This document shows, in pieces, positions 2,385-60,110 of a DNA stretch of 64,000 nt. Both the position numbers and the translations under genes were made by a program. The stretch lies in NCBI GenBank assembly GCA_963576475.1, contig OY754978.1, positions 13,619,718 to 13,683,717 on the forward strand, written 5' to 3'. This DNA comes from Molanna angustata. Lineage: Eukaryota > Arthropoda > Insecta > Trichoptera > Molannidae. Numbering within the stretch: the first letter of the stretch is position 1; every line of letters starts with the position of its first letter. Below the pieces are notes generated by a model that saw nothing but the letters and a program-made list of their open reading frames with translations, searched no databases and was not told the origin of the DNA.

Positions 2385-2548
2385 ACGAATATGTCCTTGT
2401 GTCAAGTGTATGTGAATCATCATACGTTCCTTAAATTTAGTATATGCTTGTGCTTTAGGTGTACGAAATCGGTCGCGGTAGGATTCGAACTCGCCGCGAC
2501 CAATGGATTAGGTATTAACCCAGCGCGCTAACCGTTCTGTCACAATTT
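2385..2548 (-). mobile_element. tRNA-derived SINE, family 1 (minus)
   Basis: Read in reverse it has a tRNA-like head with an A box (AGAACGGTTAGCGCGCTGGG) and a B-box region around GGTCGCGGCGAGTTCGAATCC. A body follows, running through a 'cctaaagcacaagcata' segment to the 'aaggacatat' end. The same head and body recur at 2638-2805, 5390-5555 and 48090-48225. The A-box to B-box spacing suggests a Leu/Ser-type tRNA ancestor (family knowledge, inference). Polymerase III would transcribe such elements; mobility would depend on LINE proteins. Confidence 0.75.
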
Positions 2549-2637
2549 ACATTTACAATTTACAATCTATTTACATTTTTTACCTTAGTAAATACTTATT
2601 CATTTATTTATTAAGTGAAAAACAATTACACATCACA

Positions 2638-2805
2638 CAGATGGGTCGATGGCAGAGCGGTTAGCGCGCTGGGCTAATAATCGGTCGCGAGTTCGAATCC
2701 TTCCTCGACCGATTTCGTTCACCTATAGCACAAGCATTTATTTGCTTATTATAGGGAACGTAGGAAGATGTGTATGTACTTGTTTAACAAGGACATAATC
2801 ATTAT
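2638..2805 (+). mobile_element. tRNA-derived SINE, family 1
   Basis: The A-box region GGCAGAGCGGTTAGCGCGCT at about 2650 and the B-box region GTCGCGAGTTCGAATCC at about 2685 form a tRNA-like head. The shared body then has 'cctatagcacaagcattta' and an 'aaggacata' end. It lies 90 bp from an opposite-orientation copy (2385-2548), so the two form an inverted pair. tRNA pseudogene structure is more likely than a functional tRNA because CCTTCCTCGACC does not restore an acceptor stem. Confidence 0.8.
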
Positions 2806-3949
2806 TTAAAAAAAATAATTATAATGATATTTATGAAAAATAAGCCAAAATATTTTTTATTCATTAGGTATTTTATTTTTTATAAGTATTCGATTTTTTT
2901 TATCCAAATATTGATAATCCTCGAGTGATTTTTTCGGCATAGGTACCTACTATTTAAAAATCCTCTCATAGCCTACAGAAAACAATATTGGTACCAATGA
3001 TTTAAATTCACATGATTTTAGATCTTTCGAAAACTATTATATTCGACAATGAGTATTAAATTTTAATAATAAAATTATGAAAAATTAAACATAACATTCT
3101 TACTAATAAACTTATTATATAAGTTACACGACTGTTTAACACCTGTGTAGGCAAAAACGATACTAATTAACGCTGTGTACCAGATCAGTTGGTTAACGAC
3201 TGTGTATTTCTAATACAAATTTTACACAACGCTTGCACGTCTATACAAGGTGTTTTTGGATAACTTTCATCTATCACGATTAAAATTTGATTTCGATCTA
3301 AATGTTTATATTGTTATATCTTGGAATGATTTGGCAGTTAAATAAATAAATAGGTATGTATAATACGTTTATTTATTAAAAATCTTTATAAATTATTTTA
3401 TTCTCGATACTTGAGCATTTTAAGAGCAAAAAGTAGTCAAAAAATTAGCTCCTTTATAATATCTACAATGGTGTTCGCATGCGTATTCGTATCATTTAAT
3501 TATTCGTTGTATTTTCCATATTCCTATTTTCAAATGTGAAAAATGTATGTGAATATCAACCACAACAAACGTCAAAATTTAGCGGCTGACAGTTCTGCGC
3601 CTGCATGGGTGCGAAATCGCAACGTTGCGTTGTCGGATTGATTTGTTATATTATGTCTGTTTCAACTACTTAGTCGTTATACAGCGTTTATTTGTAAGAT
3701 TCAAATAATTGCTGCACGGGCTTTACACTGTGTGTAACTAAAACACTGGTCAACGGTTGTGCAGTAGTTTCTTTTATAAATAAGACTGTTGGTATCTCAA
3801 TAAAACTAATAATTATCAAAAGTTCATTAATAAATGTATCATCTACTTTAGATAAAAACATTAATTTTACCGATGATTTTAATCCATAGTCAATACGGTA
3901 TTCATCAATCGTTTTTTAATCGTACTTAATTGAAAATTGAATTTTAGAA
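2806..3949. repeat. dispersed repeat family F (about 3270-3800) in gene-free DNA
   Basis: From about 3298 (TGTTTATATTGTTATATCTT) to about 3800, the sequence matches in the same order two blocks at 43045-43345 and 43800-43985. Shared landmarks are TTCTCGATA-TTG-GCAT, GGTGTTCGC, ATTTTCCATATTCCTATTTT, CGTTATACAGCGTTTATT and GCTGCACGGGCTTTACAC. The 5' part (2806-3270) is unassigned, although it has short related motifs such as GTTAACGACTGTGTA near 3192. It is non-coding; the class is unknown, probably a non-autonomous DNA element. Confidence 0.6.
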
Positions 3950-4334
3950 TTGAAAACGTACAAAAGAAATTTTTGAAAAAAGTACAATATATTTTTTTAA
4001 TGTGCGATTTCCAGATTATACAGCTTCGTTGAAGTATCATAATCTGGAATCACTTATACACAGAAGAATTATCCCTGATCAAAGCTTACTTTATAAAATT
4101 GTTAATAATAAATTCGATTCACCGGAATTGAATAATCTCATTACTTACCGTGTTCCCTCTAGGACAACCCGACAAACTGATCTTTTCTATATTCCACATT
4201 ATGAAATAAATCACCGAAAACATTCTACCGTTCCTCGTATCTGCGAAACATTTAACAAAAATTTCAATAGTTTTGACATATTTCACACTCCGTATAGCAG
4301 GTATATGAAAGAATTATCCAACGATCCGAGATAA
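3950..4334 (+). pseudogene. Jockey/CR1-group LINE ORF2 C-terminal relic
   Basis: A plus-strand frame reads ENVQKKFLKK near 3955, then, after a small frame disturbance, about 110 codons from 4002. These contain LNNLITYRVPSRTTRQTDLF and a Phe/Asn-rich end. The same landmarks occur in order at the C-terminus of the intact LINE at 44282-46399 (IEKIQNRFLKYLDFR ... RVPTRATRSHHLLHLP ... HFFNEH). This is therefore a 3' fragment of a related LINE that keeps only the post-thumb tail. 4335-4610 is probably its 3' UTR, ending near 'ccaattaaattaaataaa'. It has no catalytic residues and is inactive. Confidence 0.75.
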
Positions 4335-5551: not shown

Positions 5552-6063
5552 TTTTTTAACAGATTTTTTAATTATCTCAATAGAGACGAAGTTGGAATAT
5601 TTATTGTAGGAGAACCGGGAAATCAAGGCACCTACAGGGCTTACGACCTGTCATCGGCTGGTTTACGTGATCACTTTATGCGCTTGCACAACGTTCACCA
5701 ATTATGCCTTTTTAATGAGATCCCTATCAATTCAATTTTGAAACTTCTATATATTGTAATACTGAAATTCTTTTCGCTTGAAAATAAGGAATTTTCCTTT
5801 CGCTTGAAAATAAGGAAAAAAAAATCCTTATTTTCAAGCGAAAAGAATTTCAGTATTACAATATATAGAAGTTTCAAAATTGAATTGATAGGGATCTCAT
5901 TAAAAAGGCATAATTGGTGAACGTTGCGCAAGCGCATAAAGTGATCACGTAAACCAGCCGATGACAGGTCGTAAGCCCTGTAGGTGCCTTGATTTCCCGG
6001 TTCTCCTACAATAAATATTCCAACTTCGTCTCTATTGAGATAATTAAAAAATCTGTTAAAAAA
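5552..6063. repeat. near-perfect long palindrome, MITE-like, family E
   Basis: The left arm begins TTTTTTAACAGATTTTTTAA and the right arm ends with its reverse complement at 6044-6063. Positions pair around a centre near 5807. Each arm is about 245 bp and carries the same landmarks: CTCAATAGAGACGAAGTTGG, GAACCGGGAAATCAAGGCAC, GTTTACGTGATCACTTTATG and CACCAATTATGCC. The long open frames on both strands here are a by-product of the symmetry. It has no transposase, so it is a foldback or MITE-like non-autonomous element. The tail 6064-6110 (GACTCCCGACAGGGAAAAAA) recurs at 60070-60110 and, diverged, at 17270-17305, so it belongs to the family. Confidence 0.85.
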
Positions 6064-11689: not shown

Positions 11690-11702
11690 TGAATGATTGT
11701 TT
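11690..11702. repeat. left target site duplication of the PLE
   Basis: TGAATGATTGTTT here is repeated at 14697-14709 on the other side of the element at 11740-14697. It is a 13-bp direct repeat, as expected for the variable-length duplications of Penelope-like insertions. Confidence 0.85.
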
Positions 11703-11739
11703 CTAAGGTAGAGGCGTTAACATTGTGGAAATTCATTTT
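11703..11739. other. PLE tail between target duplication and terminal repeat
   Basis: These 37 bp lie between the left duplication and the start of the inverted terminal arm and are absent from the right end. A tail of about 30-40 bp at one end is a known PLE trait (family knowledge). It contains ACATTGTGGAAATTCATTTT, reminiscent of the terminal repeat's own TTGTGGAATAAAAAT. Confidence 0.6.
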
Positions 11740-11796
11740 AATAAATTATTAAAATAACAATATAACTTTGTTTATTTCCACTTATTTATTTTTATT

Positions 11797-11838
11797 CCAC
11801 AACTAGTTTCAAGAACTACCGTTCTCTTCTTCAGGTGG
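11797..11838 (-). ncRNA. hammerhead ribozyme motif, minus-strand arm
   Basis: Reverse complement of the motif at 14599-14640, with identical core. See that entry for the fold. It lies in the terminal repeat of the inverted copy, just downstream of the minus-strand coding region. Confidence 0.8.
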
Positions 11839-11852
11839 GTTTAAACTAAAAA

Positions 11853-13142
11853 CTAATTTGGTGTGGTGTGTGGCTGTGTCATAGGTATAGCGGGAGGTGG
11901 GGGTAAGGGGGGAAGTGGGCGTTGCCCTAACGGGAACATGGATAATAATGGTGAAGTGTTGGGTTGTGTCTGGTTGTTAATTATTTTCTTGTGACTGTTT
12001 ATGGCTTTGTGGATTTCTAATGTCTCTAAATTATTTTGTTTCAGTCCGTATGTATGCTTATGTAATAATTGTGCGTTTGTATTGTCAAATGTATGATTTT
12101 CTTGTATTAGGTGGTTTGCATATTCTGAGAAACCGTGTCCATTTAGACAGCGTTTATGTTCTTTGACTCTAGTTTCAATTGTCCGTCCTGTTCTCCCTAT
12201 GTAAATACTATCACAGTCCCCACATTGCAATTCATAAATTCCACTTTGTTTCAGATTACTTGTTTTTTCTGTGTTGTTTTTCAGTATAAGTCCTATATTG
12301 TTGTCTGTATACAAGGCTGGTTTTATGTTTAAAGGAAGATGTCTCGTTATATCATGTGTAATTTTATTAAGATATATTATTTTTCTCCAATTTGTGCCAG
12401 TCTCTCGTGGTTTTGGTTTGTATATGTATTTATGAATGATGTTTGTACGTGTTTTTCTGTTTAATATTTTATGAACTATATCTTTCTTGTAACCATTATT
12501 AAGAGCTATAGTTTCTATTGTTTGTAACTCCTTGTTATAGTCTGTCTTATTTAACGGTACCTTGAGTAATCTAGTGATCATTGAATGAAAGGCTGCCATT
12601 TTGTGTGTGATTGGGTGTTGTGAAGTATTATGAATGATATTGTCAGTGTATGTTGGTTTTCTAAATATGTTAAACGTAAAGGTATTATTTGTTATTTTTA
12701 TGGTCAGATCTAGGAAATTTAGAGTTCTGTCTTTTTCCGTTTCCATTGTGAATTTGATTTTATTATGTAGTGTATTAAGGTGTGTGAGAAATTTTTGTAG
12801 TTGTCGGTCCGTACCCGTCCATATGCAGAAAATGTCATCAACATATCTATACCACAACAATACATTTTTTATATATTCCTTATTTTTAGTGTTATCAAAT
12901 AAGTTATTTTCAAAATTATTCATGAAGATGTCTGCTATTAGTGGACTGGTTGGTTGTCCCATTGCCAAACCGTCCTTTTGTATATATATATTTCCATTAT
13001 AAACAAAATAGTTTTGTTCCATACAAACACTAAATAATTTTTGTAATTCGTTTGCCAAGTTTCCATCATTCAAATTTTCTGTTAAATTTTTAATAATATT
13101 TTTACTTTCCGTGATAGGAACATTGGTGAACAAATTACTCAC
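11853..13142 (-). CDS. Penelope-like RT + GIY-YIG endonuclease, 5'-truncated inverted copy
   Basis: 429 codons on the minus strand, open to a natural stop. Residues 1-150 are the palm of a PLE reverse transcriptase, the sister group of telomerase reverse transcriptase: SNLFTNVPI just after motif A, GLAMGQPTSP at 58-67, and catalytic RYVDD at 99-103. The GIY-YIG endonuclease spans roughly 300-350, with GIYELQCGDC at 301 and YIGRTGR at 314, followed by Arg and Glu. A Pro-rich end follows. The N-terminal half of the usual ~800-residue protein is missing and translation has no genuine start, because the inverted copy breaks just before motif A. Lacking the motif A aspartate, it cannot be active alone. 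Confidence 0.9.
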   Translation of the reverse strand: MSNLFTNVPITESKNIIKNLTENLNDGNLANELQKLFSVCMEQNYFVYNGNIYIQKDGLAMGQPTSPLIADIFMNNFENNLFDNTKNKEYIKNVLLWYRYVDDIFCIWTGTDRQLQKFLTHLNTLHNKIKFTMETEKDRTLNFLDLTIKITNNTFTFNIFRKPTYTDNIIHNTSQHPITHKMAAFHSMITRLLKVPLNKTDYNKELQTIETIALNNGYKKDIVHKILNRKTRTNIIHKYIYKPKPRETGTNWRKIIYLNKITHDITRHLPLNIKPALYTDNNIGLILKNNTEKTSNLKQSGIYELQCGDCDSIYIGRTGRTIETRVKEHKRCLNGHGFSEYANHLIQENHTFDNTNAQLLHKHTYGLKQNNLETLEIHKAINSHKKIINNQTQPNTSPLLSMFPLGQRPLPPLPPPPAIPMTQPHTTPN

Positions 13143-13152
13143 ATCAAACGAA

Positions 13153-13284
13153 TTTTCGGAGTAAAATGTTAGTGTCCATTTTTAATAACCTTAATATATT
13201 TGTACCCAAATTCACAGTTAAAAATTCTATTGATCTAATTGATAAGATAAAAAACATAAAGGTCCCGGACAACGCTAAATTAGT
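13153..13284. other. unique spacer between PLE arms
   Basis: 132 bp present only in the plus-oriented copy. It encodes the ~40 residues before motif A (FTVKNSIDLIDKIKNIKVPD and onward), so it marks how much further 5' the plus copy extends before the head-to-head junction. Confidence 0.8.
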
Positions 13285-14419
13285 TTCGTTTGATGTGAGT
13301 AATTTGTTCACCAATGTTCCTATCACGGAAAGTAAAAATATTATTAAAAATTTAACAGAAAATTTGAATGATGGAAACTTGGCAAACGAATTACAAAAAT
13401 TATTTAGTGTTTGTATGGAACAAAACTATTTTGTTTATAATGGAAAAATATATATACAAAAGGACGGTTTGGCAATGGGACAACCAACCAGTCCACTAAT
13501 AGCAGACATCTTCATGAATAATTTTGAAAATAACTTATTTGATAACACTAAAAATAAGGAATATATAAAAAATGTATTGTTGTGGTATAGATATGTTGAT
13601 GACATTTTCTGCATATGGACGGGTACGGACCGACAACTACAAAAATTTCTCACACACCTTAATACACTACATAATAAAATCAAATTCACAATGGAAACGG
13701 AAAAAGACAGAACTCTAAATTTCCTAGATCTGACCATAAAAATAACAAATAATACCTTTACGTTTAACATATTTAGAAAACCAACATACACTGACAATAT
13801 CATTCATAATACTTCACAACACCCAATCACACACAAAATGGCAGCCTTTCATTCAATGATCACTAGATTACTCAAGGTACCGTTAAATAAGACAGACTAT
13901 AACAAGGAGTTACAAACAATAGAAACTAAAGCTCTTAATAATGGTTACAAGAAAGATATAGTTCATAAAATATTAAACAGAAAAACACGTACAAACATCA
14001 TTCATAAATACATATACAAACCAAAACCACGAGAGACTGGCACAAATTGGAGAAAAATAATATATCTTAATAAAATTACACATGATATAACGAGACATCT
14101 TCCTTTAAACATAAAACCAGCCTTGTATACTGACAACAATATAGGACTTATACTGAAAAACAACACAGAAAAAACAAGTAATCTGAAACAAAGTGGAATT
14201 TATGAATTGCAATGTGGGGACTGTGATAGTATTTACATAGGGAGAACAGGACGGACAATTGAAACTAGAGTCAAAGAACATAAACGCTGTCTAAATGGAC
14301 ACGGTTTCTCAGAATATGCAAACCACCTAATACAAGAAAATCATACATTTGACAATACAAACGCACAATTATTACATAAGCATACATACGGACTGAAACA
14401 AAATAATTTAGAGACATAA
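13166..14419 (+). pseudogene. Penelope-like RT + GIY-YIG endonuclease, plus copy, premature stop
   Basis: The plus-strand copy of the PLE protein has motif A intact (LVSFDVSNLFTNVPI, residues ~40-54), then GLAMGQPTSP, RYVDD and the GIY-YIG domain. A premature TAA at 14417-14419 replaces a codon that is Leu in the inverted copy. It removes the last ~50 residues, which can still be read to about 14583. The finger domain upstream of motif A is absent, so the element is 5'-truncated at 13153. Other differences from the minus copy are few (NGK versus NGN; ETK versus ETI). It is probably inactive in place. Confidence 0.88.
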
Positions 14420-14598
14420 GAAATCCACAAAGCCATAAACAGTCACAAGAAAATAATTAACAACCAGACACAACCCAACACTTCACCATTATTATCCATG
14501 TTCCCGTTAGGGCAACGCCCACTTCCCCCCTTACCCCCACCTCCCGCTATACCTATGACACAGCCACACACCACACCAAATTAGTTTTTAGTTTAAAC

Positions 14599-14640
14599 CC
14601 ACCTGAAGAAGAGAACGGTAGTTCTTGAAACTAGTTGTGG
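14599..14640 (+). ncRNA. hammerhead ribozyme motif in PLE terminal repeat
   Basis: The fold can be read directly. Stem I pairs CCAC (14599-14602) with GTGG (14637-14640). The conserved core CTGAAGA is at 14603-14609, a CUGANGA match. Stem II is AGAGAAC/GTTCTT (14610-14626) with one bulged G and a GGTA loop. The core GAA is at 14627-14629. Stem III is the six-base palindrome ACTAGT (14630-14635), and the cleavage-site base is T14636. PLEs are known to carry hammerheads with minimal stem III, and the self-complementary ACTAGT would allow two copies to pair as a dimer. The orientation matches the plus-copy transcript. Confidence 0.82.
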
Positions 14641-14696
14641 AATAAAAATAAATAAGTGGAAATAAACAAAGTTATATTGTTATTTTAATAATTTAT

Positions 14697-14709
14697 TGAA
14701 TGATTGTTT
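14697..14709. repeat. right target site duplication of the PLE
   Basis: TGAATGATTGTTT, matching 11690-11702. The first T overlaps the last base of the terminal arm. Confidence 0.85.
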
Positions 14710-29293: not shown

Positions 29294-29360
29294 ATAATAT
29301 TTTTATCTCGGTTTTCCCGTGTCAGTAGGTCTTGACTAAGACCTACTCAGACCTACTCTC

Positions 29361-31889
29361 TTGACCCGTGAAAACATCAAATATAACATAAATAACCTCT
29401 ACGGTGAGGAAGTGTATCGTTCAACAAAACGATTTGAAAAGTTAAATACGAAAAGAGCAAAACTTCTATGTGATTTAACTTTCTTACGCCGATGTCGTGA
29501 TACAGAAACAATACCAGTGTCTTTTACTATAAAAACAAATAGAAAATCAGTAAAAACATCCAAAATATTAAAAAATACCGGTTTGACTCTAATTCGTGAA
29601 GAAATTAAATACATACGGTACAAACTAGATCAAGTGAGTTCTCAACTACGTGTACTTCATTTAAACCTCGCAAACACATTACATCCAGTGATATGGGATC
29701 AACTAAATAATATTGTGCAATATCGTGTTGACACCAATACAACATACACCACGGAACGCCAAATAAAGAAATTTACCAACCTACAGAAAAATAAATATTG
29801 TCACCAAGCCGCTCTGGATACAAACAAGGTCATTCACAATTTATCAAATTTTCAACTGAATAATAATGCTATTTCCGTCCTCTTAAAAGGTTTTAACCAT
29901 GGTGTATCATATAAAACTATTCCTAAAGAAGAAATAATTACAGCGGTTGAATCAGCCATTCACAAATGCACCAATAATACTGCCGAAACAATTAGACAAG
30001 AAACATGCTCGATTTTAAGAAAAAATACACCACCAAAATGCAATTTATCAAAACTAGAAATAATAGCCCTCAAAGAATTACGCAACAACAAAGATTTGAT
30101 AATCCTTCCAGCTGATAAAGGCAATGCCACAGTAGTGATGAACAGTGAAGATTATAAATCGAAAATGACCGATATCCTTGAAGACCCAGCATACAAAATA
30201 CATGCAAGCAACCCAATCACGTATCTTGAGAAAACCACGAAAACTAAAATAATGGAAACAAAACTTAGTGATGATATCAAGAAGTCACTTATTCCACGAG
30301 AGAAGTCGTCACGCTTTCCAAAATTATATGGTCTTCCAAAAATTCATAAGAAAGATATTCCTCTCAGACCAATTGTTAGTTCCATTGGTTCGCCGTTACA
30401 AATGCTTTCTAAATTCCTCGCGAATATGTTGCAGCCCTATGTAGAATCCGCAGACTCCTATGTCAAAAACTCAGAACATTTCATATCACTCATCACTGAC
30501 TTAGAACTGGAAAGTACAGATATTCTTGTGAGTTTTGACGTTGTTTCTTTATTTACAAATATTCCAATTAACGAGACACTAGACATAATCAAAGAAACAC
30601 TCAATACCACAGACGATATTTTAAATTTATTTTATCACTGTTTAAATAACACATTTTTTTATTACAACAATAAGACATACAAACAAATAAAAGGAGCACC
30701 TATGGGTTTGTCATTGTCACCAGCAGTCGCCAACTTATTTATGACGAGGTTTGAAGAAGTAGTCTTAAAGAAAGTAATACTCAAACCAAAGAAATGGCTA
30801 AGATATGTGGATGACACATTCGTAGTATGGTCTCACGGAGAAGAAGAATTAAATAATTTTTTGAACACTATTAACAGCATTCATAAAGATATAAAGTTTA
30901 CAATGGAGAAGGAAAATAACAGACAAATACCTTTCTTAGACGTTTTAGTGTTAAAAAAAGCAAACGGTTAACTGGGGCACACAGTATATAGAAAGCCCAC
31001 ACACACCGATAGATACCTACACGCAACGTCCAATCATCACCCCGCACAAATATGCTCAGTCGCAAAAACACTAATAACAAGATCAAAAAGAATTGCAGAC
31101 CACGAGCATAAAAAACAAGAATTAGAATACACGAAAAATGCTCTACGTTGTAATGGTTTCTCAGACTATATAATAAACAAAGCATTAAAGAGTCCAAAAA
31201 CAGTGAAAGAAAAATCCAATGAAACACCTTTATCAACAGCCCGACTACCATATATCAAAGGCGTCACCGATAAAATCAGCCGTCTATTAAACAAAAATAA
31301 CATACGTACCGTTTTCAGCACAACAAATAAAATATCAACCTTTCTAAGAAACCCGAAAGACATCATTCCACTTGAAGCTCATGGAGTATATGAAATACCG
31401 TGCGGATCGTGCAATAAGACTTATGTAGGAAGAACCAATCGAAAAGTTGAAGCACGAATAGCGGAGCACAGAGTCGACATGAGAAACAAAAAACTTACAT
31501 CCTCACTTGTACAACACTCGCTCACAGAAGGACATACAATAGATTTTGACCATTCAAAAATAATAGCAAGTTTAAACAGTGAACCTCTCAGAATTTACAG
31601 GGAAGCTATAGAAATATATAAGAGAAGGGATATAATGAACAATCGGGACGACGGAGTTCGTTTGCCTAGTACCTGGAAGAACATTTTATATGACAAACAA
31701 TACAATAATAATATTAATAATACCATAGCGAAAATAACCCCAAAACACAACAATAATAATATTAATGTCACAACTAAAATTAACAATAAATCACAACACA
31801 AAAATAATGATAAAATATTATTACCAACGAACACGACAGCAGGTGGGCGTGTCACAAGGAGCCAATCACGTCGCGCTAACAATATTTGA
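29361..31889 (+). pseudogene. Penelope-like RT + GIY-YIG protein, one in-frame stop
   Basis: One reading frame of about 842 codons, interrupted only by TAA at 30969-30971. Residues 1-250 are the N-terminal region. ADKGNATVVM is at 251, YGLPKIHK at 323 and LRPIVSS at 335 (PLE RT motifs). Motif A SFDVVSLF is at 391, GAPMGLSLSP at 445 and catalytic RYVDD at 481. After the stop, the frame resumes with LGHTVYRKPTHTDRYL. The GIY-YIG endonuclease begins HGVYEIPCGSCNKTYVGRTN at about 674, followed by Arg and Glu positions. The Lys/Asn-rich tail ends in basic residues. All visible catalytic residues are kept. Length matches PLE proteins of about 800 residues. The single stop suggests recent decay or an assembly error. 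Confidence 0.92.
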
Positions 31890-39517: not shown

Positions 39518-40282
39518 CACTGAAAAAAATGTCAATTTGGTGTAATCTTAAAATATCATGACGTAAGTATAAAATAGGTGCAGTCACCTAAAATAATGAA
39601 ATAATCATTTAAAATATTACGCTCTCATTGAAATGGAATCGAATTATTTGAGTAAATAACGAAGTATTATGATGCTCATCATCTTAAAAATTGATCACAT
39701 TAAATAATAGTTTCCTTTCTCAAATAATAACATTATGGAATATAAAATAGTCCACTGTCCTATAAATTTACGTGATAATCATAAATAAGATTATAATCAT
39801 AAAAAACAGTGACGAGTCACCGTATTTATAAAGATTTCACAGTTTATTATGAAGAAGTGTCACTGAAAATACGATGAAGTCTCCGAATTTAGTGTTATAA
39901 AATTATGTGAAACTTTTTAAGGTATGGAACATTCATTTATACTACAGTCATATTATTTTATGTGAAACATACTAAAATACGATAACAATCATTTTGTGTA
40001 AGAGGAATCATATCATTTTGTGTGCTTCCTACAAAAATATGATGACAGCGCACCATACAATATTCTCATTTGCTCACCGTTCATTCAATCAGTCATTCAT
40101 TTGTTCGGCATGGAGCAGGGTGGTTGTCGACTCGGTCTCGCAGTCTCGCTACAAAACTTCAGTGACGGACAGACACAGGCCAGAAAGTTGAGATTGTGTT
40201 TTATTTTTGAAATTTATTTTAAAAAAATATTAAAATAACATGATTCTAGAGTTTTTGTGTTTACAGAGTGGAAATCCATTTT

Positions 40283-40457
40283 TAATGAATAAATAAATAA
40301 CTTTGTATTTTTCCACAATATTTTTTATATTAAAGACCGAACGTTTTCGCCAAGGTGACTTGGCATTTTCAAGGTTCAAACGAAACTTTCGTAAACGAAA
40401 CAAAAAACGAAAGTGATAAAAAATATTGTGAAAAATACAAAGTTATTTATTTATTCA
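40283..40457. mobile_element. nested terminal-repeat palindrome of a third PLE family
   Basis: The arms AATAAATAAATAACTTTGTA TTTTTCCACAATATTTTTTA (40286-40326) and their reverse complement (about 40417-40457) enclose GACCGAACGTTTTCGCC, AAGGTGACTTGGCATTTTCAAGG. The latter, in reverse, reads CCTTGAAAATGCCAAG ... CTTGGCGAAAACG, the same hammerhead-like layout as PLE2. Confidence 0.6.
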
Positions 40458-40458
40458 A

Positions 40459-40642
40459 TTAAAATAACAAAATAACTTTGTTTATTTCCACTTACTTATT
40501 TTTATTCCACAACTTGTTTCAAGAACAACCGTTCTCTTTTTCAGTTTAAACCCACCTGAAGAAGAGAACGGTAGTTCTTGAAACTAGTTGTGGAATAAAA
40601 ATAAATAAGTGGAAATAAACAAAGTTATATTGTTATTTTAAT
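40459..40642. mobile_element. nested PLE1 terminal repeats, inverted pair
   Basis: The left arm (AAAATAACAAAATAACTTTG ... CTTTTTCAG) and the right arm (CCCACCTGAAGAAGAGAACG ... TATTGTTATTTTAATA) are the terminal repeats of the PLE at 11740-14697, joined nearly head to head with no coding region. The right arm keeps a complete hammerhead motif (40552-40593); the left has substitutions in it. Confidence 0.85.
40552..40593 (+). ncRNA. hammerhead ribozyme motif, solo PLE1 end
   Basis: Same 42-base motif as 14599-14640: CCAC, CTGAAGA, hairpin with GGTA loop, GAA, ACTAGT, T, GTGG. The core bases and stems are unchanged even though no PLE gene is present here. Confidence 0.78.
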
Positions 40643-40664
40643 ATTTTTTATATTAAGACGTCAC

Positions 40665-41000
40665 TGGATATATGAGGAAGTCATCGAAAAATGGTAGGAA
40701 CAATTAAAGAACGTCACTGTAGATAATAGAACGTCACCGAAAAATAGTAGGAAACATAATAAGACATCACAAGAGATATGAGGAAGTCATCTATAATAAT
40801 AGGACGTCACTGTAGATAAGAAAACGTCATCGAAAAATAGTAGGAAATATAATAAGACATCACAAGAAATATGAGGAAGTCATCTATAGTAATAGGAAGT
40901 CGCTGCAGATAAGAGAACGTCACCGAAAAATAGTAGGAAATATAATAAGACGTCATAGGAGATATGATGAAAGCAAACATAAATAGTAGGAAACATAATC
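40665..41000 (+). repeat. ~115-bp imperfect tandem repeats rich in CGTCA
   Basis: Units repeat the order 'acgtcac/atc', 'gaaaaatagtaggaaayata', 'ataagacatcacaagara', 'tatgaggaagtcatcta', 'tagtaatagga'. About three units are visible. They are internal to the candidate DNA transposon. Confidence 0.75.
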
Positions 41001-41177
41001 ATATAATGTATTCTCGTCCTACTAAAGTCAGTGACACGTCATCTTATATGCCTTTATCATCATAAATCGTATTATCATCTTAATTTTGATGATATCACTA
41101 TGCTCCGTACTAATAGTGAATTCACCATACTTTAAGCTGAATTCACGTTATTTATGAATATCAATTTTCTCAGTGTA

Positions 41178-44281: not shown

Positions 44282-46399
44282 TTATTGTAAGAGAAGTTTT
44301 GATTTGATATTAGTTATTGAGGAGTTGAATACGTCAAATTCGTTTAAGTGCTCATTGAAGAAGTGTGATGCTCGATATATGAATGCATGCTGTTTAGCGC
44401 TTGTGTTACAGTGAGGCAGGTGTAATAAGTGGTGGGATCGGGTAGCTCGGGTGGGAACTCGAAGAGCTAATCGTTCAAGCAGTTCCGGGCAATCCACGAT
44501 GGAGTTGGCGATTTTATACAAGTAGACGGCGTCGGAAATATTTCTGCGGTTTTCCAATGTGCTAAGTTTAAAGAACTCAGCAGAATCAGAGTAGCTAAGA
44601 TGAGTTCGGAAGGAACGAAAATCGAGGTACTTTAGGAATCTATTCTGAATTTTTTCTATTCTATGTATGTAGGTAGAGTACCTAGGATTCCAGACTTGTG
44701 AAGAATATTCTAGAATGCTGCGCACATATGTAAAGTATAATGTTTTTAATGTAAATATATTGTTAAAATGCTTGCATGTACGGAGGATAAAGCCGAGGAT
44801 CCTAGACGCTTTGGATACAATGTAATCAATGTGCTTGTCAAATAATAGTTTTGAGTCAAGGATGATACCAAGGTCTTTAGTTTCTTTTACGTTACGTAGT
44901 GCTTGATTATTTAAACTATAGTTGAAGTTTATTATGTTCTTGTTCCGGGTGAATTTTAGGCAGTGGCATTTGGTAGGGTTAATTTGTAGGTTGTGTTGTT
45001 TGCAATATAGGTCGAGACGATTAAGGTCAGTTTGAATCTTTTCACAATCCTCAATACATTTGACTGGGCAATAAATCTTCATGTCGTCTGCGAAAAGCGA
45101 GACTTTAGCAAAAGTAAAACAATTAGAGATATCTTTGATATAGATATTAAACAGAAGTGGTCCCAGCAAGGAACCTTGAGGAACCCCCGAAGTGACCCGG
45201 ATCCAATTAGATTTAAAACCACTAGCAACAACAGCTTGGCTGCGGTTTGATATATATGAAGAAATCCATCTCAATAAATCGCCGTGGATACCAATTTGCT
45301 GAAGTTTGAGAATGAGCGTGGAGTGTATTACTTTGTCGAATGCCTTACTATAGTCCGTGTAGATTACGTCAACCTGAATTCTTTGGTCCATGTTGTCATG
45401 AAGATATTCCACAAAAGAAATGAGGTTAGAGGTTGTCGATCGGTTTTTTATAAATCCATGTTGGCTCGAGTTTAGAGCTGGTCTTAGAGCAGTGATTATT
45501 TGGTCGTATATAATTTTTTCAAGAATTTTACTAAAAATACATAGTTTAGAAATAGGTCGATAGTTTTCAACATCTGATTTATTGCCCTTTTTGAATATAG
45601 GACTTACGTGGGCTTGTTTCCAAATACTAGGCATATTACCCTCAGTTAAGGAGCGATGAAATAAGATAGTTAATGGAAAAGACAAGTGATATGCACATTT
45701 ATGTATAAGGACAGAAGAAATGCGATCTGGACCAGCTCCTTTCGTTATATCAAGTTTTTCAATATATTTGAGGATAAGATTTTGATGTTTTTCAATATTA
45801 TTAACACTAGGGTTACTATCATGAAATTTTTTGGGAATATTTGGATGCACTGATGAATTAGTATCAAATACCGAGCTAAAATATTTAGAGAAGAGATTGG
45901 AAATATCGGGACCATTTTCAGCTTTTTCTTCATTGAAGAACATTGTATTCGGGAGTTCATGTGAATCATTGTTAGCTTCGACGTATTTCCATAAGGTTTT
46001 GGGATTGAAGGAGATACCGTTTTCAATAGATCTTAGGTAGGAAGAACGAAGTTGACGAATCAGATTTTTAAAACGGGTTCGGAGTAAACAGAATGTGTCA
46101 TAGTCTAGGGGATTCTTGAAGGTTTTAAATTTTCTATGAAACTTGTGCTTCTCTTTGACTAGTTTAATAAGTGCTGTGCTATACCAAGGAGGATATTTAG
46201 TGTTCCATGTTAGTTTTCTAGGGATATAAGTTTCAATTAGGTCATATAAAATCGAATAGAATCTGTCAAGACTCATGTCAAGGTCGCCAGTTGAGAGTAA
46301 ATTATGCCAGTTAATCTGTTGAAGAGAATAGTTAATTGAATCGTAATCTCCACGGTGAAAAAGAGATATCCATCTTTGTTCCGCGTGCAATACAGGCAA
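44282..46399 (-). CDS. Jockey/CR1-group LINE ORF2, intact reverse transcriptase, 5'-truncated
   Basis: 705 open codons on the minus strand. Residues ~1-200 are the linker after the endonuclease. RT motifs follow: GAGPDRISS at about 221, NYRPISKL at about 279, QHGFIKNRSTTSNL at about 314, motif A TDYSKAFDKV at 348, GVPQGSLLGP at 405 and catalytic FADD at 436-439. The thumb and C-terminal tail follow, with IEKIQNRFLKYLDFR, RVPTRATRS and HFFNEH. The frame stays open upstream of the listed Met through the endonuclease C-terminus (next entry), so Met is not a true start. There is no stop or frameshift in the RT, so the copy is young. The polymerase would act by target-primed reverse transcription. 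Confidence 0.92.
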   Translation of the reverse strand: MPVLHAEQRWISLFHRGDYDSINYSLQQINWHNLLSTGDLDMSLDRFYSILYDLIETYIPRKLTWNTKYPPWYSTALIKLVKEKHKFHRKFKTFKNPLDYDTFCLLRTRFKNLIRQLRSSYLRSIENGISFNPKTLWKYVEANNDSHELPNTMFFNEEKAENGPDISNLFSKYFSSVFDTNSSVHPNIPKKFHDSNPSVNNIEKHQNLILKYIEKLDITKGAGPDRISSVLIHKCAYHLSFPLTILFHRSLTEGNMPSIWKQAHVSPIFKKGNKSDVENYRPISKLCIFSKILEKIIYDQIITALRPALNSSQHGFIKNRSTTSNLISFVEYLHDNMDQRIQVDVIYTDYSKAFDKVIHSTLILKLQQIGIHGDLLRWISSYISNRSQAVVASGFKSNWIRVTSGVPQGSLLGPLLFNIYIKDISNCFTFAKVSLFADDMKIYCPVKCIEDCEKIQTDLNRLDLYCKQHNLQINPTKCHCLKFTRNKNIINFNYSLNNQALRNVKETKDLGIILDSKLLFDKHIDYIVSKASRILGFILRTCKHFNNIFTLKTLYFTYVRSILEYSSQVWNPRYSTYIHRIEKIQNRFLKYLDFRSFRTHLSYSDSAEFFKLSTLENRRNISDAVYLYKIANSIVDCPELLERLALRVPTRATRSHHLLHLPHCNTSAKQHAFIYRASHFFNEHLNEFDVFNSSITNIKSKLLLQ

Positions 46400-46640
46400 A
46401 TTGAAAAATGATATGTCAATAGAAAGAGAGGGATGGTGCGCATCTTCTTCAATTAGGAGATCATCAGATGTCGAGACACATACATGATCGTTGCATAATA
46501 TTAGGTCAAGGAACCTGCCACTGGCGTTGGGAATACTATTAAATTGGTGTAACCCAGAAAAATTAATACAGTCGATAAATGAGAGACTCGTTGATGTTGG
46601 GTGGTTTGTAACGGAGCAGAGAGTATTGTTTATGGTCGTG
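46400..46640 (-). pseudogene. endonuclease C-terminal remnant of the same LINE
   Basis: In frame with the RT, the minus strand reads TLCSVTNHPTSTSLSFIDCI, then ASGRFLDLILCNDHVCVSTS and EEDAHHPSLSIDISF. GRFLDLIL and the HHPSL segment match the end of an APE-type endonuclease (the DLI/L and D/HH-SL catalytic neighbourhood). The element begins abruptly near 46640, so it is 5'-truncated inside the endonuclease, as is usual for LINE insertions. Confidence 0.75.
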
Positions 46641-47619
46641 GTCGAGTATTGTTTATAACGTGTCTATATATAAAATGTCATTGGTATACACGATGTTTTT
46701 ATATCATAGATTAGGTCAAATGACTGATCAAACTTAAAAAATAATGAATAACAATCAAATTCAGATCTCTGAATGATACCTATGTAGTATATGGGCTTGT
46801 ACTAGTATCTTTACTAGCGTTGCAAACCTATGTGGGTTTTAGTTTTCTCCACATATGACTGCCGGTAATACAAAAAATTATATTTTTTTTCAAACGTATC
46901 TCGAATTAATGACATAGACCCAAAAAAATTTCCAACAGCGAAACGTTTGAATAATTATTCATTTGTTTGGAATATTAGTTACTTGCGCCGATTCATCCAA
47001 CCCCCAAGAGCCTAGCGCAATTTTGAATCTTTATATCAACAGTCGCGTCTTCATTTGATCCTGTAAAATATCTCTTTGTATTCCCAGTTGGACTGTTTCA
47101 ATATATTGTTGAGTGTTCCGCTTAGAGTAGGCAGAGCTATTCAGATAAACATTTCAACTAAATGAAACAGTTCCAGTTCCAGGTGCTGGGGGGGAGGGCG
47201 TTAACAAATCATTTACAGGAATAATGGGGATGTTTTCTCCCTTTTCTTGCAACACACAGTTATTCACTCTTTCCTTGCCGAACGTTCCCTTTTTCTCCGT
47301 TATTTACATTCAAGCAAACTTTTCGGTTTGTATCTAATTTCCATAATATAAAACAAAACACCAAAAATAGCGGATTTGAGTTCCGATTGATTTAGCCGTC
47401 TTTATTTATTCCGATTGATTCGCCGTTTATATTCGTCCCTACTGATTAAGAAACGTTCGCTTCGAAACCAGTCGTATAAAATTCCTCATTTGTGCTTTGC
47501 ACCAAATAAATAATACGAGATAGTGGTAGATGGTTGTAGACGATAAACCGATAATAGAACACGTTACAACTTACAACTTGTAATGATCTGTATAAAGATG
47601 TCAAAGAACAGACTAATAA
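46641..47619. other. no recognisable feature
   Basis: Spacer without domain motifs. The minus-strand frame at 47446-47721 overlaps the next relic and is a shadow. Confidence 0.35.
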
Positions 47620-52869: not shown

Positions 52870-53164
52870 GAGTCTAATTATTTTTCTTCTTAATTTTATG
52901 TAGACCTTTAGGGCAGTTTTTATACAAACTATTTCCTATAGTCTTATTCATCTTCTTCTTCTTTTATGTATACATTTGGGTCATTTTTTATAAAAATTAT
53001 TTCTTTTAGTCTAATTATTCTTCTTCTTCATTCAAGTACGTAGACTTTTGGGAGAGTTTTAATACAAACTATTTCCAATAGTCTTATTCATTTTCTTCTA
53101 CTTTTGTGTAGACCAAGGGTCAGTTTTTATAAAAAATTTTCTTATAGTTTAATTATTATTCTTT
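52870..53164 (+). repeat. ~65-bp minisatellite, left part
   Basis: Units follow the order 'ttttatgtagaccttt(a/g)gg', CAGTTTTTATACAAACTATT, TCCTATAGTCTTATTCATCT and TCTTCTTC. The array resumes at 55936, so the LINE at 53165-55935 inserted into it. Confidence 0.85.
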
Positions 53165-54207
53165 TATATCGAATGGGGACATGTATGAAAGAGTACAAGC
53201 TTGAATGGTCTAGACTGATGTGGGTAAGGCTGAAGATTGGAATTACAAGCGTGTTTCTAATTATAGGATACGCACCTGTGAACTCCGATAGCGAAAGTGA
53301 AAAGGATGAATTCTGGAACACGCTGACTGAAATAATGAACATGAAAAAAGATAATGAAAGAGTGATTCTGGCTGGAGATCTTAATGGGTGGGTGGGCGTC
53401 CGTCGGAAAGATTTTGAGACTGTCCTTGGTCCCCACGGTGATAGTAGAGTGAATGAAAATGGTAAGAGACTTCTGGAAGTTTGTACGGAAGGAAATCTAT
53501 TTGTGGCGAATACTGTATTCAGCCACAAAAGAGTTCACCAGTATACATGGCAAAGAGGGAACGAAAGGTCGATAATTGATTATGTATGTGTGGACGCCGC
53601 ACTGAGGAAAGCGACAGTGGATACTAGGGTGTATAGGGGCGCGGAGCTGGAAACAGACCATTACTTGGTGATATCCAAAATTGATCTGTTCACCGGTTGG
53701 CGCTCAAAAACCCACCGTAGTGATCCACCGAAGCGAACCAAAGTGGAAAGGCTGCAAGATGAGAATGTAAGAAAACAATATGTGAAAGATATCGGAAGCA
53801 AACTTCTTTTAGCTATAGACAGTAAAGGAATCATCGAAGAAGCATGGACGACCTTGAAAGAGACCGTATGTAAGACAGCAGAGAGAGTTTGTGGTGATGC
53901 TAAAAGAGGCGGAAAGAAAGGCGACGCATGGTGGAATGAGAGAGTAAAGTTTGTTGTGGGTGAGAAGAAAAAAGCATGGATGGCATTAATAGCAGCGAAA
54001 GGATCTAACAGTGAAGAAAGAGCAAAAGAGAAGTATAAAGAATGTAAAAAAATGGTAAAAGATATTGTAAAAAGAGAAAAAGATTTTCTGAAAGAGAAAG
54101 AAAGCCTGAAAATAGCCAATGACTTTCCTGGTAACATGAAAATGTTCTGGAAAGGCGTGGCGAAAAGAAAAAATGTATCGTGTCAAAGTATCGCAAGGTA
54201 TAAATGA
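53104..54207 (+). CDS. APE-type endonuclease remnant of RTE-like LINE
   Basis: The frame opens in flanking minisatellite; LINE sequence begins around residue 24 (MGTCMKEYKLEW). The visible endonuclease covers VFLIIGYAPVNSDSESEKDE, then ILAGDLNGWVG with the catalytic Asp/Asn, RVHQYTWQRGNERSIIDYVC and TDHYLVISKID with the terminal catalytic His. The N-terminal half, with the first Asn and the catalytic Glu, is missing. Residues ~190-360 are a Lys/Glu-rich linker (KKAWMALIAAKG, KEKYKECKKMVKD) leading to the RT. The frame then diverges from the RT frame within an AAAAAA run near 54168, consistent with a one-base indel. Cannot cut DNA as it stands. Confidence 0.85.
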   Translation: MCRPRVSFYKKFSYSLIIILLYRMGTCMKEYKLEWSRLMWVRLKIGITSVFLIIGYAPVNSDSESEKDEFWNTLTEIMNMKKDNERVILAGDLNGWVGVRRKDFETVLGPHGDSRVNENGKRLLEVCTEGNLFVANTVFSHKRVHQYTWQRGNERSIIDYVCVDAALRKATVDTRVYRGAELETDHYLVISKIDLFTGWRSKTHRSDPPKRTKVERLQDENVRKQYVKDIGSKLLLAIDSKGIIEEAWTTLKETVCKTAERVCGDAKRGGKKGDAWWNERVKFVVGEKKKAWMALIAAKGSNSEERAKEKYKECKKMVKDIVKREKDFLKEKESLKIANDFPGNMKMFWKGVAKRKNVSCQSIARYK

Positions 54208-55935
54208 TAAAGATGGAAAATTAATTATGGATGAAGATGGCGTAAAAGAACGATGGAAAGAATACTTCAAGGAGCTGTATGATTGCGGTTTGAGTGGTGG
54301 CATGAATCAGAGAGCATGGCAAGTATACGAAGATGAAAAAGATGAAATTACGAAAGACGAAGTGTTTGAAGCAGTTAAACACGCGAAAGCGGGAAAAGCT
54401 GCTGGGTATGACAGTGTATCAGCTGAACTTATAAAGTATGGCGGCGATCAGATGTTGGAGTGGTGTCACTCTCTTTTCAACAAATGTTGGGAAGCAGGAC
54501 GCACTCCTTCAGACTGGAGAAATGCAGTCGTGGTCCCCTTGTACAAAGGTAAAGGATCGAAGCTTGACTGCAAAAACTATAGAGCCATAAGTTTGCTAAG
54601 CTCAGTTGGTAAGATGTATGCAAGAATTTTGGATCAAAGAGTACGAAAGGTTACAGAAAGCAAGATATGGGATGTCCAAGGAGCGTTTGTGGGCGGCAGA
54701 GGATGTATAGACCAAATTTTTTCTCTGCGTATGGTTACAGAAAAGGTCCTGGATAAAAACCAGAAGCTTTTTTGTGCTTTTATAGACCTTGAAAAGGCCT
54801 ATGATAAAGTCAACAGAGAAAAACTATGGGATATATTGTCAGTGTACGGAGTGAAGAGCAAGCTGATACGCGCAATCGCGTCATTGTATGAGAATAGCGA
54901 GGCATGTGTTCGTGTCAACGACACAGTAACGTCGTGGTTCTCTATAAATAGTGGCGTAAGACAGGGGTGCGTGTTGTCACCATGGCTCTTCAATCTGTAC
55001 ATTGATTTCTGCATAAGAGCCCTAAGGGATGAAAATAAGGGTCTGAAACTGAGTACTGTAACAGTGCGTGATTTGATGTATGCAGACGATAAAGTCCTGT
55101 TAGCAGAAAGCGTGGAAGAGTTACATTATCTAGTAAGCATGGTATATGAAGGATGCATAGAGTACGGACTGAGGATGAATGCTAGCAAATCAAAGGTAAT
55201 GGTCTTTGAAAAGTGTGAAAGCAGAACATCGTGTCAAATAAAAGTAGAGAATGAATGGCTTGAACAAGTCGACGAATATGTTTATCTGGGAAGCATGTTC
55301 CAACGGAATGGACGGCCTGATAAGGATATTGAAAGAAGAGTTATGGCAGGAAACAGAGTGAATGGAGCACTTAAACCAGTTATGAATGATCGTAACGTAT
55401 CAAAGGAAGCTAAAGTTGCCATTCATAACGCAATTGTAGTGCCAACTTTGATGTATGCAAGTGAAACCTGGACATGGCAGAAGTCGCATGAAAGTAGAAT
55501 AAATGCAGTGGAAATGAGATCGTTAAGAAGAATTTGTAATAGAACGATGTATGATAGAGTTAGAAATGAGGTCACTAGGAAAGAATGTAAGATGAAGAAA
55601 GATGTAGTAACTAGAATGAAAGTTAACACACTTAGATGGTTTGGTCACGTGGAAAGAATGAATGAAGAACGCTTGACGAAAAAAATATATAAGGCTGACA
55701 GGAATGGAAAAAGAGGTCGGGGGCGCCCAAGAAAAGGATGGCACGACCATGTGAATGATATTCTGAAAGAAGGAAATGTTAGAAGTCTGAACAATAGAAG
55801 AACATGCATGAGACGTAGCATGAATGTTGACGAGGCGGTAAATGTATGTCAAGATAGAATAGTGTGGCGTTCTGTTCTCTCTGCCTACCCCGCGAGGGAC
55901 ATGGCGTGATGGTATGTATGTATGTATGTATGTAT
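53165..55935 (+). mobile_element. RTE-like LINE, 5'-truncated, inserted in minisatellite
   Basis: The endonuclease remnant (53173-54180) and full RT (54173-55909) are followed by the 3' end GGACATGGCGTGATGG and a (TATG)n tail (55911-55934). A short TTATAT borders both sides, a possible target duplication. The single EN-RT coding unit and short-repeat tail fit RTE-type LINEs; the clade is an inference. It is the source-type sequence for relics at 20165-21475 and 58230-58800. Confidence 0.85.
54173..55909 (+). CDS. RTE-like LINE reverse transcriptase, intact core
   Basis: 578 codons. KAGKAAGYDSVSAELIKYGG at about 75, DWRNAVVVPLYKGKGSKLDC at about 115, NYRAISLLSSVGKMYARILD at about 138, QGAFVGGRGCIDQIFSLRM at about 168, motif A FCAFIDLEKAYDKVNREKLW at about 200, GVRQGCVLSPWLFNLYIDF at about 262 and catalytic YADDKVLLAES near 303. 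The C-terminal region has YLGSMFQRNG, ETWTWQKSHESRINAVEMRS, LRWFGHVERMNEERLTKKIY and GRGRPRKGWHDHVNDIL. All catalytic aspartates are kept. In an uninterrupted element it would be fused to the endonuclease upstream; here the frame is shifted. The first Met is probably not a natural start. Confidence 0.92.
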   Translation: MYRVKVSQGINDKDGKLIMDEDGVKERWKEYFKELYDCGLSGGMNQRAWQVYEDEKDEITKDEVFEAVKHAKAGKAAGYDSVSAELIKYGGDQMLEWCHSLFNKCWEAGRTPSDWRNAVVVPLYKGKGSKLDCKNYRAISLLSSVGKMYARILDQRVRKVTESKIWDVQGAFVGGRGCIDQIFSLRMVTEKVLDKNQKLFCAFIDLEKAYDKVNREKLWDILSVYGVKSKLIRAIASLYENSEACVRVNDTVTSWFSINSGVRQGCVLSPWLFNLYIDFCIRALRDENKGLKLSTVTVRDLMYADDKVLLAESVEELHYLVSMVYEGCIEYGLRMNASKSKVMVFEKCESRTSCQIKVENEWLEQVDEYVYLGSMFQRNGRPDKDIERRVMAGNRVNGALKPVMNDRNVSKEAKVAIHNAIVVPTLMYASETWTWQKSHESRINAVEMRSLRRICNRTMYDRVRNEVTRKECKMKKDVVTRMKVNTLRWFGHVERMNEERLTKKIYKADRNGKRGRGRPRKGWHDHVNDILKEGNVRSLNNRRTCMRRSMNVDEAVNVCQDRIVWRSVLSAYPARDMA

Positions 55936-58800: not shown

Positions 58801-59744
58801 TGCTGGACGTCCAATTATGGATGCACACAAAATTACATGAGCGCTTATTCAATCACACAAGTATGAGTTACATAAATTAGATAAAATTCTGTTACAAAAC
58901 TTAAGTAAAAAAAGAAGAAGGAAAAATATTTACATAATTTATGAAATTTAAGAAAAGAGAAAAATAAGTTATAGAAGTTACACAAGTTACATAAGTAGAA
59001 GTAAAAATTTAAGAAAAGAGAAAAATAAGTTATAGAAGTTACACAAGTTACATACATAAGTAGAAAATATCTTTAAACATTGCGAATTCATAACTCTTGT
59101 TTTGTATATGTCTTATATTACTTTTGGGGATTTTACATATAATATTACGTTAACGTAAATGTAAATAATACGTTTATTATTATTTTATTATCAAAATACA
59201 ATCGAATATTGCGTTTTTCATATATTTTTCAATATTTTTATTTAATTCCAGGAACAGACAGTCATATACAGCTTGTGGGAGTAAAAAAAAACAATATATG
59301 TATACAAAACCAGTTAAGTTCCCTAATGCTTTTATACAATCAAAATAAAAATAATGGCTAGATAATGTGAGTGATCTTTACAATACAAAATATACAGTAT
59401 AAACGACAAAAAAAAATACTTATTCATAACCTATTACAAACCTCTATAGAACAGGAAGGGAGAGGAAATAGAGGGATAGGAATAACCTCGAAGATTTTCA
59501 ATTTCGCCCCAATATTGTCATATCTTTATATTTCCTGAAATAAGACAAGTATTGTGCTACTGTTTGAATGTGCATGAAATCGTTCAAAATCATGAAATTT
59601 CGTAACCATGAGCGACCATGGAAAAATTAAATTATTATTATAACAAACAAAGTTTGTTTCATAAAAAAAGGTTTAATATAGTTAATTTCGTTTTTTGTAT
59701 TAATATTATTTCATTAATATTCTTAAAAATAAACAGCTCTCTTT
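58801..59744. repeat. 60-bp tandem duplication (58951-59068) in gene-free DNA
   Basis: AAGAAAAGAGAAAAATAAGT followed by TATAGAAGTTACACAAGTTA is repeated at exactly 60-bp offset (58951 and 59011). The rest, to 59744, is A+T-rich with no gene. 59245-59530 has a LINE-3'-UTR-like look ('ggaacagacagtcatataca', 'gggagaggaaatagaggga'), unproven. Confidence 0.6.
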
Positions 59745-60110
59745 ATTTATTAACAGATTTTTAATTATCTCAATAGAGACGAAGTTGGAATATTTTACTG
59801 TAGGAGAACCGGGAAATCAAGGCACCTACAGGGCTTACGACCTGTCATAGGCTGGTTTACGTGATCACTTTATCAATTCAATTTAATTGATAGGGATCTC
59901 ATTAAAAAGGCATAATTGGTGAACGTTGCGCAAGCGCATATAAAGTGATCACGTAAACCAGCCGATGACAGGTCGTAAGACCTGTAGGTGCCTTGATTTC
60001 CCGGTTTTCCTACAGTAAAATATTCCAACTTCGTCTCTATTGAGATAATTGAAAAGCTGTTAAAAAATATCCTTGACTCCCGAGAGGGAAAAAAATCCAA
60101 TGTTTGAGCA
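59745..60110. repeat. family E palindrome, shortened copy
   Basis: The left arm (AACAGATTTTTAATTATCTC ... GTTTACGTGATCACTTTATC) and the right arm (AAAGTGATCACGTAAACCAG ... GATAATTGAAAAGCTGTTAA) mirror each other. The centre is ATTCAATTTAATTGAT near 59883. The inner ~45 bp of the left arm (the GCGCTTGCGCAACG segment) is deleted, so the arms are unequal. The GACTCCCGAGAGGGAAAAAA tail follows. Confidence 0.85.

What the first reader, a model, noticed from the sequence alone, without database searches (positions are those of the whole stretch)
14599..14640. Complete hammerhead ribozyme motif with a self-complementary stem III in a PLE terminal repeat
Seen: stem I CCAC/GTGG, core CTGAAGA, stem II hairpin with GGTA loop, GAA, palindrome ACTAGT, cleavage base T. 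Established: hammerheads are reported in Penelope-like elements. Inference: ACTAGT is too small to close as a hairpin (two-base loop), so the active form is probably a dimer of two transcripts or of two repeats in one transcript. The motif is kept in three of four terminal-repeat arms in the window, including a solo pair with no gene, which suggests selection or a young age.
Basis: partly seen in the sequence, partly recalled or inferred. Interest (0 to 1): 0.75.

Follow-up and report, generated by a model that had tools for sequence, protein, structure and literature searches.

The report
Hammerhead ribozyme in Penelope-like retrotransposon
The window carries a short self-cutting RNA motif inside a jumping gene, of a kind already described, and copies sampled from the same genome suggest that the RNAs copied into new insertions had usually not been cut by it.

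Summary
The hammerhead motif is real at 14599-14640: stem I, core CTGAAGA, stem II, GAA, ACTAGT, T14636. In the window's 995-Mb genome the core-plus-ACTAGT pattern occurs 1055 times against 18 for the reversed control. It lies in the pseudo-LTR of an RT + GIY-YIG Penelope-like element (PLE). Minimal, dimer-acting hammerheads of PLEs are published: a new member of a known kind. No Rfam hammerhead model matched.

(1) An extra A or U stands between A9 and helix II in 17 of 17 well-paired cores at one-residue offset. (2) The window repeats are inverted, so one transcript cannot hold two sense copies. (3) The gene-less pair lies in a larger repeated unit, and cores of partner arms are not better kept than flanks; selection on copies is unsupported.

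The insertions add more: of 65 head-to-head pairs, 51 have one arm ending near position 160 and the other near 118; all 38 with a target duplication of at least 9 bp do. Arms usually start at 2-15, upstream of the ribozyme; no joint was flush with the cut site. I infer two-ended reverse transcription of uncleaved RNA.

The parts
14599..14640 (+). Hammerhead motif of the finding: stem I 14599-14602/14637-14640, core 14603-14609, extra A 14610, stem II hairpin 14611-14626, GAA 14627-14629, palindrome ACTAGT 14630-14635, predicted cut after T14636
11797..11838 (-). Second intact hammerhead, in the inverted left arm
40552..40593 (+). Third intact hammerhead, in the gene-less pair
40458..40544 (-). 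Fourth arm, ribozyme broken (G8 lost, palindrome lost, stem I 5' strand absent)
11703..14696 (.). PLE insertion: two 5'-truncated copies head to head, 3' ends outward
11703..13152 (-). Left arm, the tail-bearing (distal-start) copy; RT and GIY-YIG coding, frame 11853-13181; tail with the first codons of the ORF at 11703-11736
13161..14696 (+). Right arm, the tail-less (proximal-start) and longer copy; frame 13130-14419 ends at a stop that the left arm lacks
11690..11702 (+). Left target duplication TGAATGATTGTTT
14697..14709 (+). Right target duplication TGAATGATTGTTT
14590..14598 (+). AGTTTAAAC: inferred RNA 5' end (position 9-10) and palindrome GTTTAAAC where many head-to-head joints fall
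   Evidence: start not mapped by experiment
39914..41177 (.). Larger repeated unit that holds the gene-less pair (88% to L048 over 1297 columns)

Best explanation
It is the minimal type I hammerhead of a Penelope-like retrotransposon, in its pseudo-LTR. Shown by sequence: in an intact direct unit (L069) the order is hammerhead, ATG 65 nt after the cut site, an 841-aa frame, stop, and 14 nt later the next hammerhead. The window holds a head-to-head insertion of two 5'-truncated copies. Inferred: transcripts start near position 9-10, so the ribozyme lies at the RNA 5' end, and again downstream if transcription reads into a following unit. Stem III is only the palindrome ACUAGU, so efficient cutting should need two RNAs, or two direct copies in one RNA, paired as a double hammerhead; I expect it to be slow or to need the element's protein. 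Inferred from insertion ends: new copies are mostly made from RNA with an uncut 5' ribozyme. The enzyme cuts both target strands and each broken end primes its own cDNA, one from a start near position 160 and one near 118, and the two cDNA 3' ends are then joined, often at the palindrome GTTTAAAC.
For: Motif: 1055 places against 18 for the reversed pattern; 0 full hits in 40 simulated windows; different stem I and stem II sequences with pairing kept. PLE: RT and GIY-YIG, complete direct unit. Insertion rule: 51 of 65 head-to-head pairs have one end at 150-170 and one at 130 or less; a target repeat of 9 bp or more is found in 38 of 65 (re-paired control mean 1.5, maximum 5), and all 38 follow the rule. 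In the 27 pairs fetched after the rule was seen, 24 follow it. Same source for both arms: 14 of 6831 differences within loci, 504 of 83395 between loci; 14 private variants in both arms, 9 in one. Uncut template: of 132 arms at 92% identity or more, 107 have the 5' end inside the probe, 88 of these at positions 2-15 and 0 at 55-60; 80 head-to-head joints with both cores exact against 1 match at the cut site, which on reading still carries ribozyme sequence upstream of the cut. Published parallels: Anolis PAc, whose ribozyme needs protein, uses unprocessed RNA, with two start sites and extension on both strands (PMC11167929).
Against: No Rfam match. No cleavage was measured. Dimer energy is not better than two monomers. 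Loci were found by patterns that contain the ribozyme core, so arms that start at the cut site could be seen only as partners; one search is the test free of this, and it needs both arms to start there. 14 of 65 pairs do not follow the two-ends rule (9 concordant, 5 other), though none of these shows a target repeat. The core and ACTAGT were fixed in the genome query, so their conservation across families was not tested.
Confidence: 0.75

Rival explanations
1. The inverted arms arise by fold-back self-priming: one strand snaps back at a palindrome and is copied into the second arm, as proposed for rotifer Penelope elements on an antisense template.
For: Palindromic joints at GTTTAAAC in many of the 50 places listed; arms of one locus share private variants; proposed in PMC3846280.
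Against: If one cDNA is copied into the other, the arm copied second should be the shorter and should not carry sequence absent from the first. The tail is on the shorter arm in 13 of 14 clearly unequal pairs (within the probe 8 of 9, p 0.04). Joints with 1-4 extra nt or with other microhomology also occur.
Confidence: 0.2
2. The ribozyme is not kept for cutting: the fold serves as an RNA landmark (protein binding, or tethering two RNAs through ACUAGU), and catalysis is incidental.
For: Insertions look made from uncut RNA; the Anolis ribozyme mutants still insert in vitro (PMC11167929).
Against: The catalytic residues are in every one of the 1055 places by choice of pattern, so this says nothing either way; several stem families keep core and fold. 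The extra residue is A or U, which in a viroid hammerhead are the active choices (PMC3705267).
Confidence: 0.3
3. The gene-less pair is a retrozyme, a small non-autonomous element moving as circular RNA made by its ribozymes.
For: No gene between the arms; L009 has 349-bp direct units each with a hammerhead.
Against: The pair is inverted, not tandem; its arms do not start at the cut site; it lies in a larger repeated unit. Whether the 349-bp unit occurs elsewhere could not be asked: the search did not complete.
Confidence: 0.05
4. Chance likeness of the letters.
For: No Rfam match.
Against: 1055 against 18 places; 0 in 40 simulated windows.
Confidence: 0.01

Closest known systems
Minimal type I hammerheads of Penelope-like elements (Cervera and de la Pena 2014; Lunse et al. 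2017)
   Same: Type I arrangement, very weak helix III, in PLE pseudo-LTRs, thought to act as dimers. Both papers are not held; seen as titles and review passages
   Different: Whether the published ones carry the extra residue before helix II I could not see
PAc, Penelope-like element of Anolis (PMC11167929, main text)
   Same: Hammerhead at the start of the unit, two reverse-transcription start sites, tail, unprocessed RNA as template, cutting and extension of both strands
   Different: There the start codon is 26 bp upstream of the cut; here the ATG is 65 nt downstream of it (positions 55 and 120)
Rotifer and Drosophila Penelope architecture (PMC3846280, passages and Discussion)
   Same: Inverted pseudo-LTR, palindromic joint, tail on one of the inverted repeats, short target duplication
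   Different: There the tail is called optional and self-priming is proposed; here a tail on exactly one arm is the rule in pairs with a target duplication
Metazoan retrozymes and newt or axolotl satellite hammerheads (PMC7229834, passages)
   Same: Type I hammerhead; one axolotl form has a one-pair helix III with a palindromic tetraloop and works as a dimer
   Different: Those are direct tandem repeats without a protein gene
Plus hammerhead of chrysanthemum chlorotic mottle viroid (PMC3705267, passages)
   Same: One extra residue between A9 and G10.1; A tolerated, U faster, C and G harmful
   Different: A plant viroid; no relation claimed

Membership tests
Hammerhead ribozyme | Core CUGANGA ... 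GAA with cleavage base not G | tested here: met
Hammerhead ribozyme | Helix II starting directly after A9 | tested here: not met
   One extra residue; 17 of 38 distinct cores pair with 4 or more pairs best at one extra, 1 at two, 0 at zero. A natural viroid hammerhead has the same insertion, so this is a variant, not an exclusion
Hammerhead ribozyme | Three helices in the monomer | tested here: not met
   Helix III is one pair in the monomer; met only in a dimer, as in the published minimal kind
Hammerhead ribozyme | Match to a curated covariance model | tested here: not met
   Rfam
Hammerhead ribozyme | Self-cleavage | not testable with these tools
   needs an assay
Minimal PLE hammerhead | Location in the pseudo-LTR of a PLE | tested here: met
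Minimal PLE hammerhead | Helix III weak or absent, dimer possible | tested here: met
   (structure possible; energy not in favour)
Penelope-like element | RT plus GIY-YIG endonuclease in one frame, pseudo-LTRs | tested here: met
   RT above cut-off, GIY-YIG just below it; direct unit with an 841-aa frame between pseudo-LTRs
Retrozyme | Direct tandem units, each with a hammerhead, without a protein gene | tested here: not met
   Both window pairs inverted; L009 has such units but was not followed

The most novel reading that the evidence does not exclude
The genome keeps a readable record of how PLEs insert. One uncut RNA, with its hammerhead intact at the 5' end, is copied twice: two enzyme units start about 40 nt apart on the same RNA, one at each end of the broken target. 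The trailing copy cannot pass the leading one, which would explain why the tail-bearing arm is the shorter. The hammerhead would then mark or tether template RNA, and cutting would come at another step.
Probability: 0.3. Interest if true: 0.65.

Novelty: new member of a known kind. Interest (0 to 1): 0.42.

Why it matters
The ribozyme itself is of a published kind. The use of this case is its copy number: over a thousand places in one genome let one ask which RNA ends were copied into DNA. That makes two open questions testable from sequence: whether the hammerhead cuts the template RNA before insertion, and how the inverted arms of Penelope-like elements form. The extra residue before helix II is a small structural point for the bench.

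Tried and rejected
Rfam at gathering score and at E <= 10 gave no hammerhead. Rejected: chance; a retrozyme for the gene-less pair; copy-level selection on the core. Fold-back is disfavoured, not excluded. A relaxed descriptor found no hammerhead at the second PLE of the window. The two key papers on PLE hammerheads are not held.

Flaws in my own calls: the long probe was built wrongly (the stop was not found, so a tail was added behind a tail); I used its relative coordinates only, and L010 was itself the probe, so its longer arm rests. Some target repeats printed (L076, for example) used an outer fragment; one search recomputed all 65 pairs. The table was put together by hand; one search applied one rule: 8 of 9 unequal pairs inside the probe have the tail-less arm longer (p 0.04), and with L010, L011, L012, L013 and the window pair, whose arms run beyond the probe, 13 of 14. 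The exception is L037; L038, classed 'other' because its long end is at 139, also has the tail-side arm longer and is not in the tally. L064 was counted by its fragments as equal.

What was left out: one search took 38 distinct cores from the first 100 of 1055 places (at least one listed core, at C1:36627173, was not typed in). The first set of loci comes from those 100 places (contigs C1 and C2); seven further places of the window's type on C2 were listed but not fetched. One search listed 50 of 80 joints: 14 have the joint of the gene-less pair (one shared repeated unit is my inference, flanks compared only for fetched loci), 7 were already held, 27 were fetched, and 2 with a different joint (C9, C12) were not. 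Searches left out L001, L002, L003, L005, L022, L028 (other type, divergent or duplicate). One search scored 40 of 1708 candidates, which favours long copies.

Full report
OBSERVATION. The motif is in the sequence as written. Below, position p of the right arm is window 14581+p: core C3 is 22, and the predicted cut is after 55. Three full copies are in the window; the fourth arm is broken. Of 38 distinct cores typed from the first 100 of 1055 places, 17 pair best, with four or more pairs, at one extra residue, 1 at two and 0 at zero; the residue is A or T in these 17. A viroid hammerhead has such an insertion; there U is faster, and C or G are harmful (PMC3705267, passage).

MORE THAN CHANCE. 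The window lies in a genome of 994.8 Mb. The pattern CTGANGA-N(6-30)-GAAACTAGT is found 556 times forward and 499 reverse, against 11 and 7 for the reversed pattern. Stem II is GAGAAC/GTTCTT, GAGGAC/GTCCTT, GCTC/GAGC or GGAG/CTCC in different types, and stem I CCAC/GTGG or ACT/AGT. Core and ACTAGT were part of the query, so only the stems are a free test. Some listed places pair poorly and may be decayed or chance. Rfam does not recognise the motif.

DIMER. In the monomer helix III is one pair. Energies in kcal/mol: hammerhead fold -3.6, stems I and II alone -10.7, minimum fold -12.1; double hammerhead -24.0; best dimer with the upstream GUUUAAAC -31.0, where that palindrome pairs instead; without it -26.6, a double-hammerhead shape with AACUAGUU paired over 8 bp. 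The dimer is thus possible but not favoured over two monomers.

HOST ELEMENT. Both arms at 11703-14696 encode RT with a weak GIY-YIG match. L069 has a complete direct unit with a period of 2642 bp and an 841-aa frame; intact frames therefore exist. The window insertion is two 5'-truncated copies, head to head, with a 13-bp target duplication.

THE GENE-LESS PAIR. The pair at about 40438-40647 is inside a unit whose flanks match L048 over 1.3 kb and L061, L066, L038 and others in part. In 14 of the 50 places listed the joint is of its type. It is not independent support for selection. In 21 partner arms, changed sites are 7 of 357 in the core, 13 of 420 in stems and 9 of 962 in the flank.

INSERTION RECORD. 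Of 65 head-to-head pairs, 51 have one arm ending at 150-170 and the other at 130 or less, 9 are concordant and 5 other. Of the 9, L009 and L071 run on through arrays and show no true ends, L034, L043 and L055 are old, L066 and the window pair belong to the repeated unit, L059 and L092 are broken up. A direct repeat of at least 9 bp at the ends is found in 38 of 65, against a mean of 1.5 and a maximum of 5 when ends of different loci are paired; all 38 are in the class with one end of each kind, 0 of 14 outside it. The tail is on the left arm in 27 of 51. In the 27 pairs fetched after the rule was seen, 24 follow it. In one search, 31 of 47 matches end at positions 158-167; that list favours long copies.

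ARM LENGTH AND IDENTITY. 37 of 51 pairs have 5' ends within 15 nt of each other; of the rest the tail-less arm is longer in 8 of 9 inside the probe and in 5 of 5 beyond it. Arms of one locus differ at 14 of 6831 sites, different loci at 504 of 83395; 14 private variants are in both arms, 9 in one. Both arms thus come from the same source sequence; whether from one RNA molecule is not shown.

WAS THE TEMPLATE CUT. Of 132 arms of at least 92% identity, 25 run to the probe start; of the other 107, 88 start at positions 2-15, 11 at 16-54, 0 at 55-60, 7 beyond 60 and 1 before 2. Genome-wide there are 80 head-to-head joints with both cores exact (control 0), but 1 match for joints at the cut site, which on reading still has ACTAGT-like sequence on both sides. 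A cut RNA would start at 56. The loci were found through the core, so arms starting at 56 are seen only as partners; one search does not have that bias, but needs both arms to start there. I conclude that most of the sampled insertions were made from RNA with an uncut 5' ribozyme. The RNA start near position 9-10 is inferred from these ends.

PRIOR WORK. Minimal hammerheads in PLEs that may act as dimers are published (PMC7761336, PMC6155905, passages). The Anolis element has a protein-assisted hammerhead, unprocessed template RNA, two start sites, and cutting and extension of both strands (PMC11167929, main text). Inverted pseudo-LTRs with a tail on one are known in rotifers (PMC3846280, passages and Discussion). 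I did not meet the rule of one start site per end in the passages that I saw; paper searches were made, in open-licence PMC only, so this is no proof of novelty.

VERDICT. A real member of a known ribozyme kind with an extra residue in its core, in a genome whose copy number makes the insertion route readable.

Noticed in passing
window 29340-31889: A second, different PLE on the + strand (29% identity to the homologue P0001; two frames, 29340-30971 and 30972-31889, split by a stop), between long TA repeats and inverted repeats.
   Followed up: partly
L009 (G000:C1:19113500-19118500), 2427-4152: Direct 349-bp units, each with a hammerhead, made of the start of the ORF joined to its end; the array is itself doubled head to head. 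It looks like a small non-autonomous derivative. Spread in the genome not known.
   Followed up: partly
window 40649-40980: 93-bp tandem repeat with GACGTCACTG-like motifs beside the gene-less pair, shared with the flanks of several other loci.
   Followed up: partly
L020 (G000:C2:22320100-22320900): Another ribozyme type (stem II GCTC/GAGC, stem I ACT/AGT) also found as a head-to-head pair.
   Followed up: no
window 5552-6063 and 59744-60069: Long near-perfect hairpins (244 and 130 nt arms) that draw weak plant microRNA matches; probably short inverted-repeat transposons.
   Followed up: no
window 44282-46663 and 53044-55909: Long reverse-transcriptase-like frames that look like other non-LTR retrotransposons (read by eye, no family search).
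   Followed up: no
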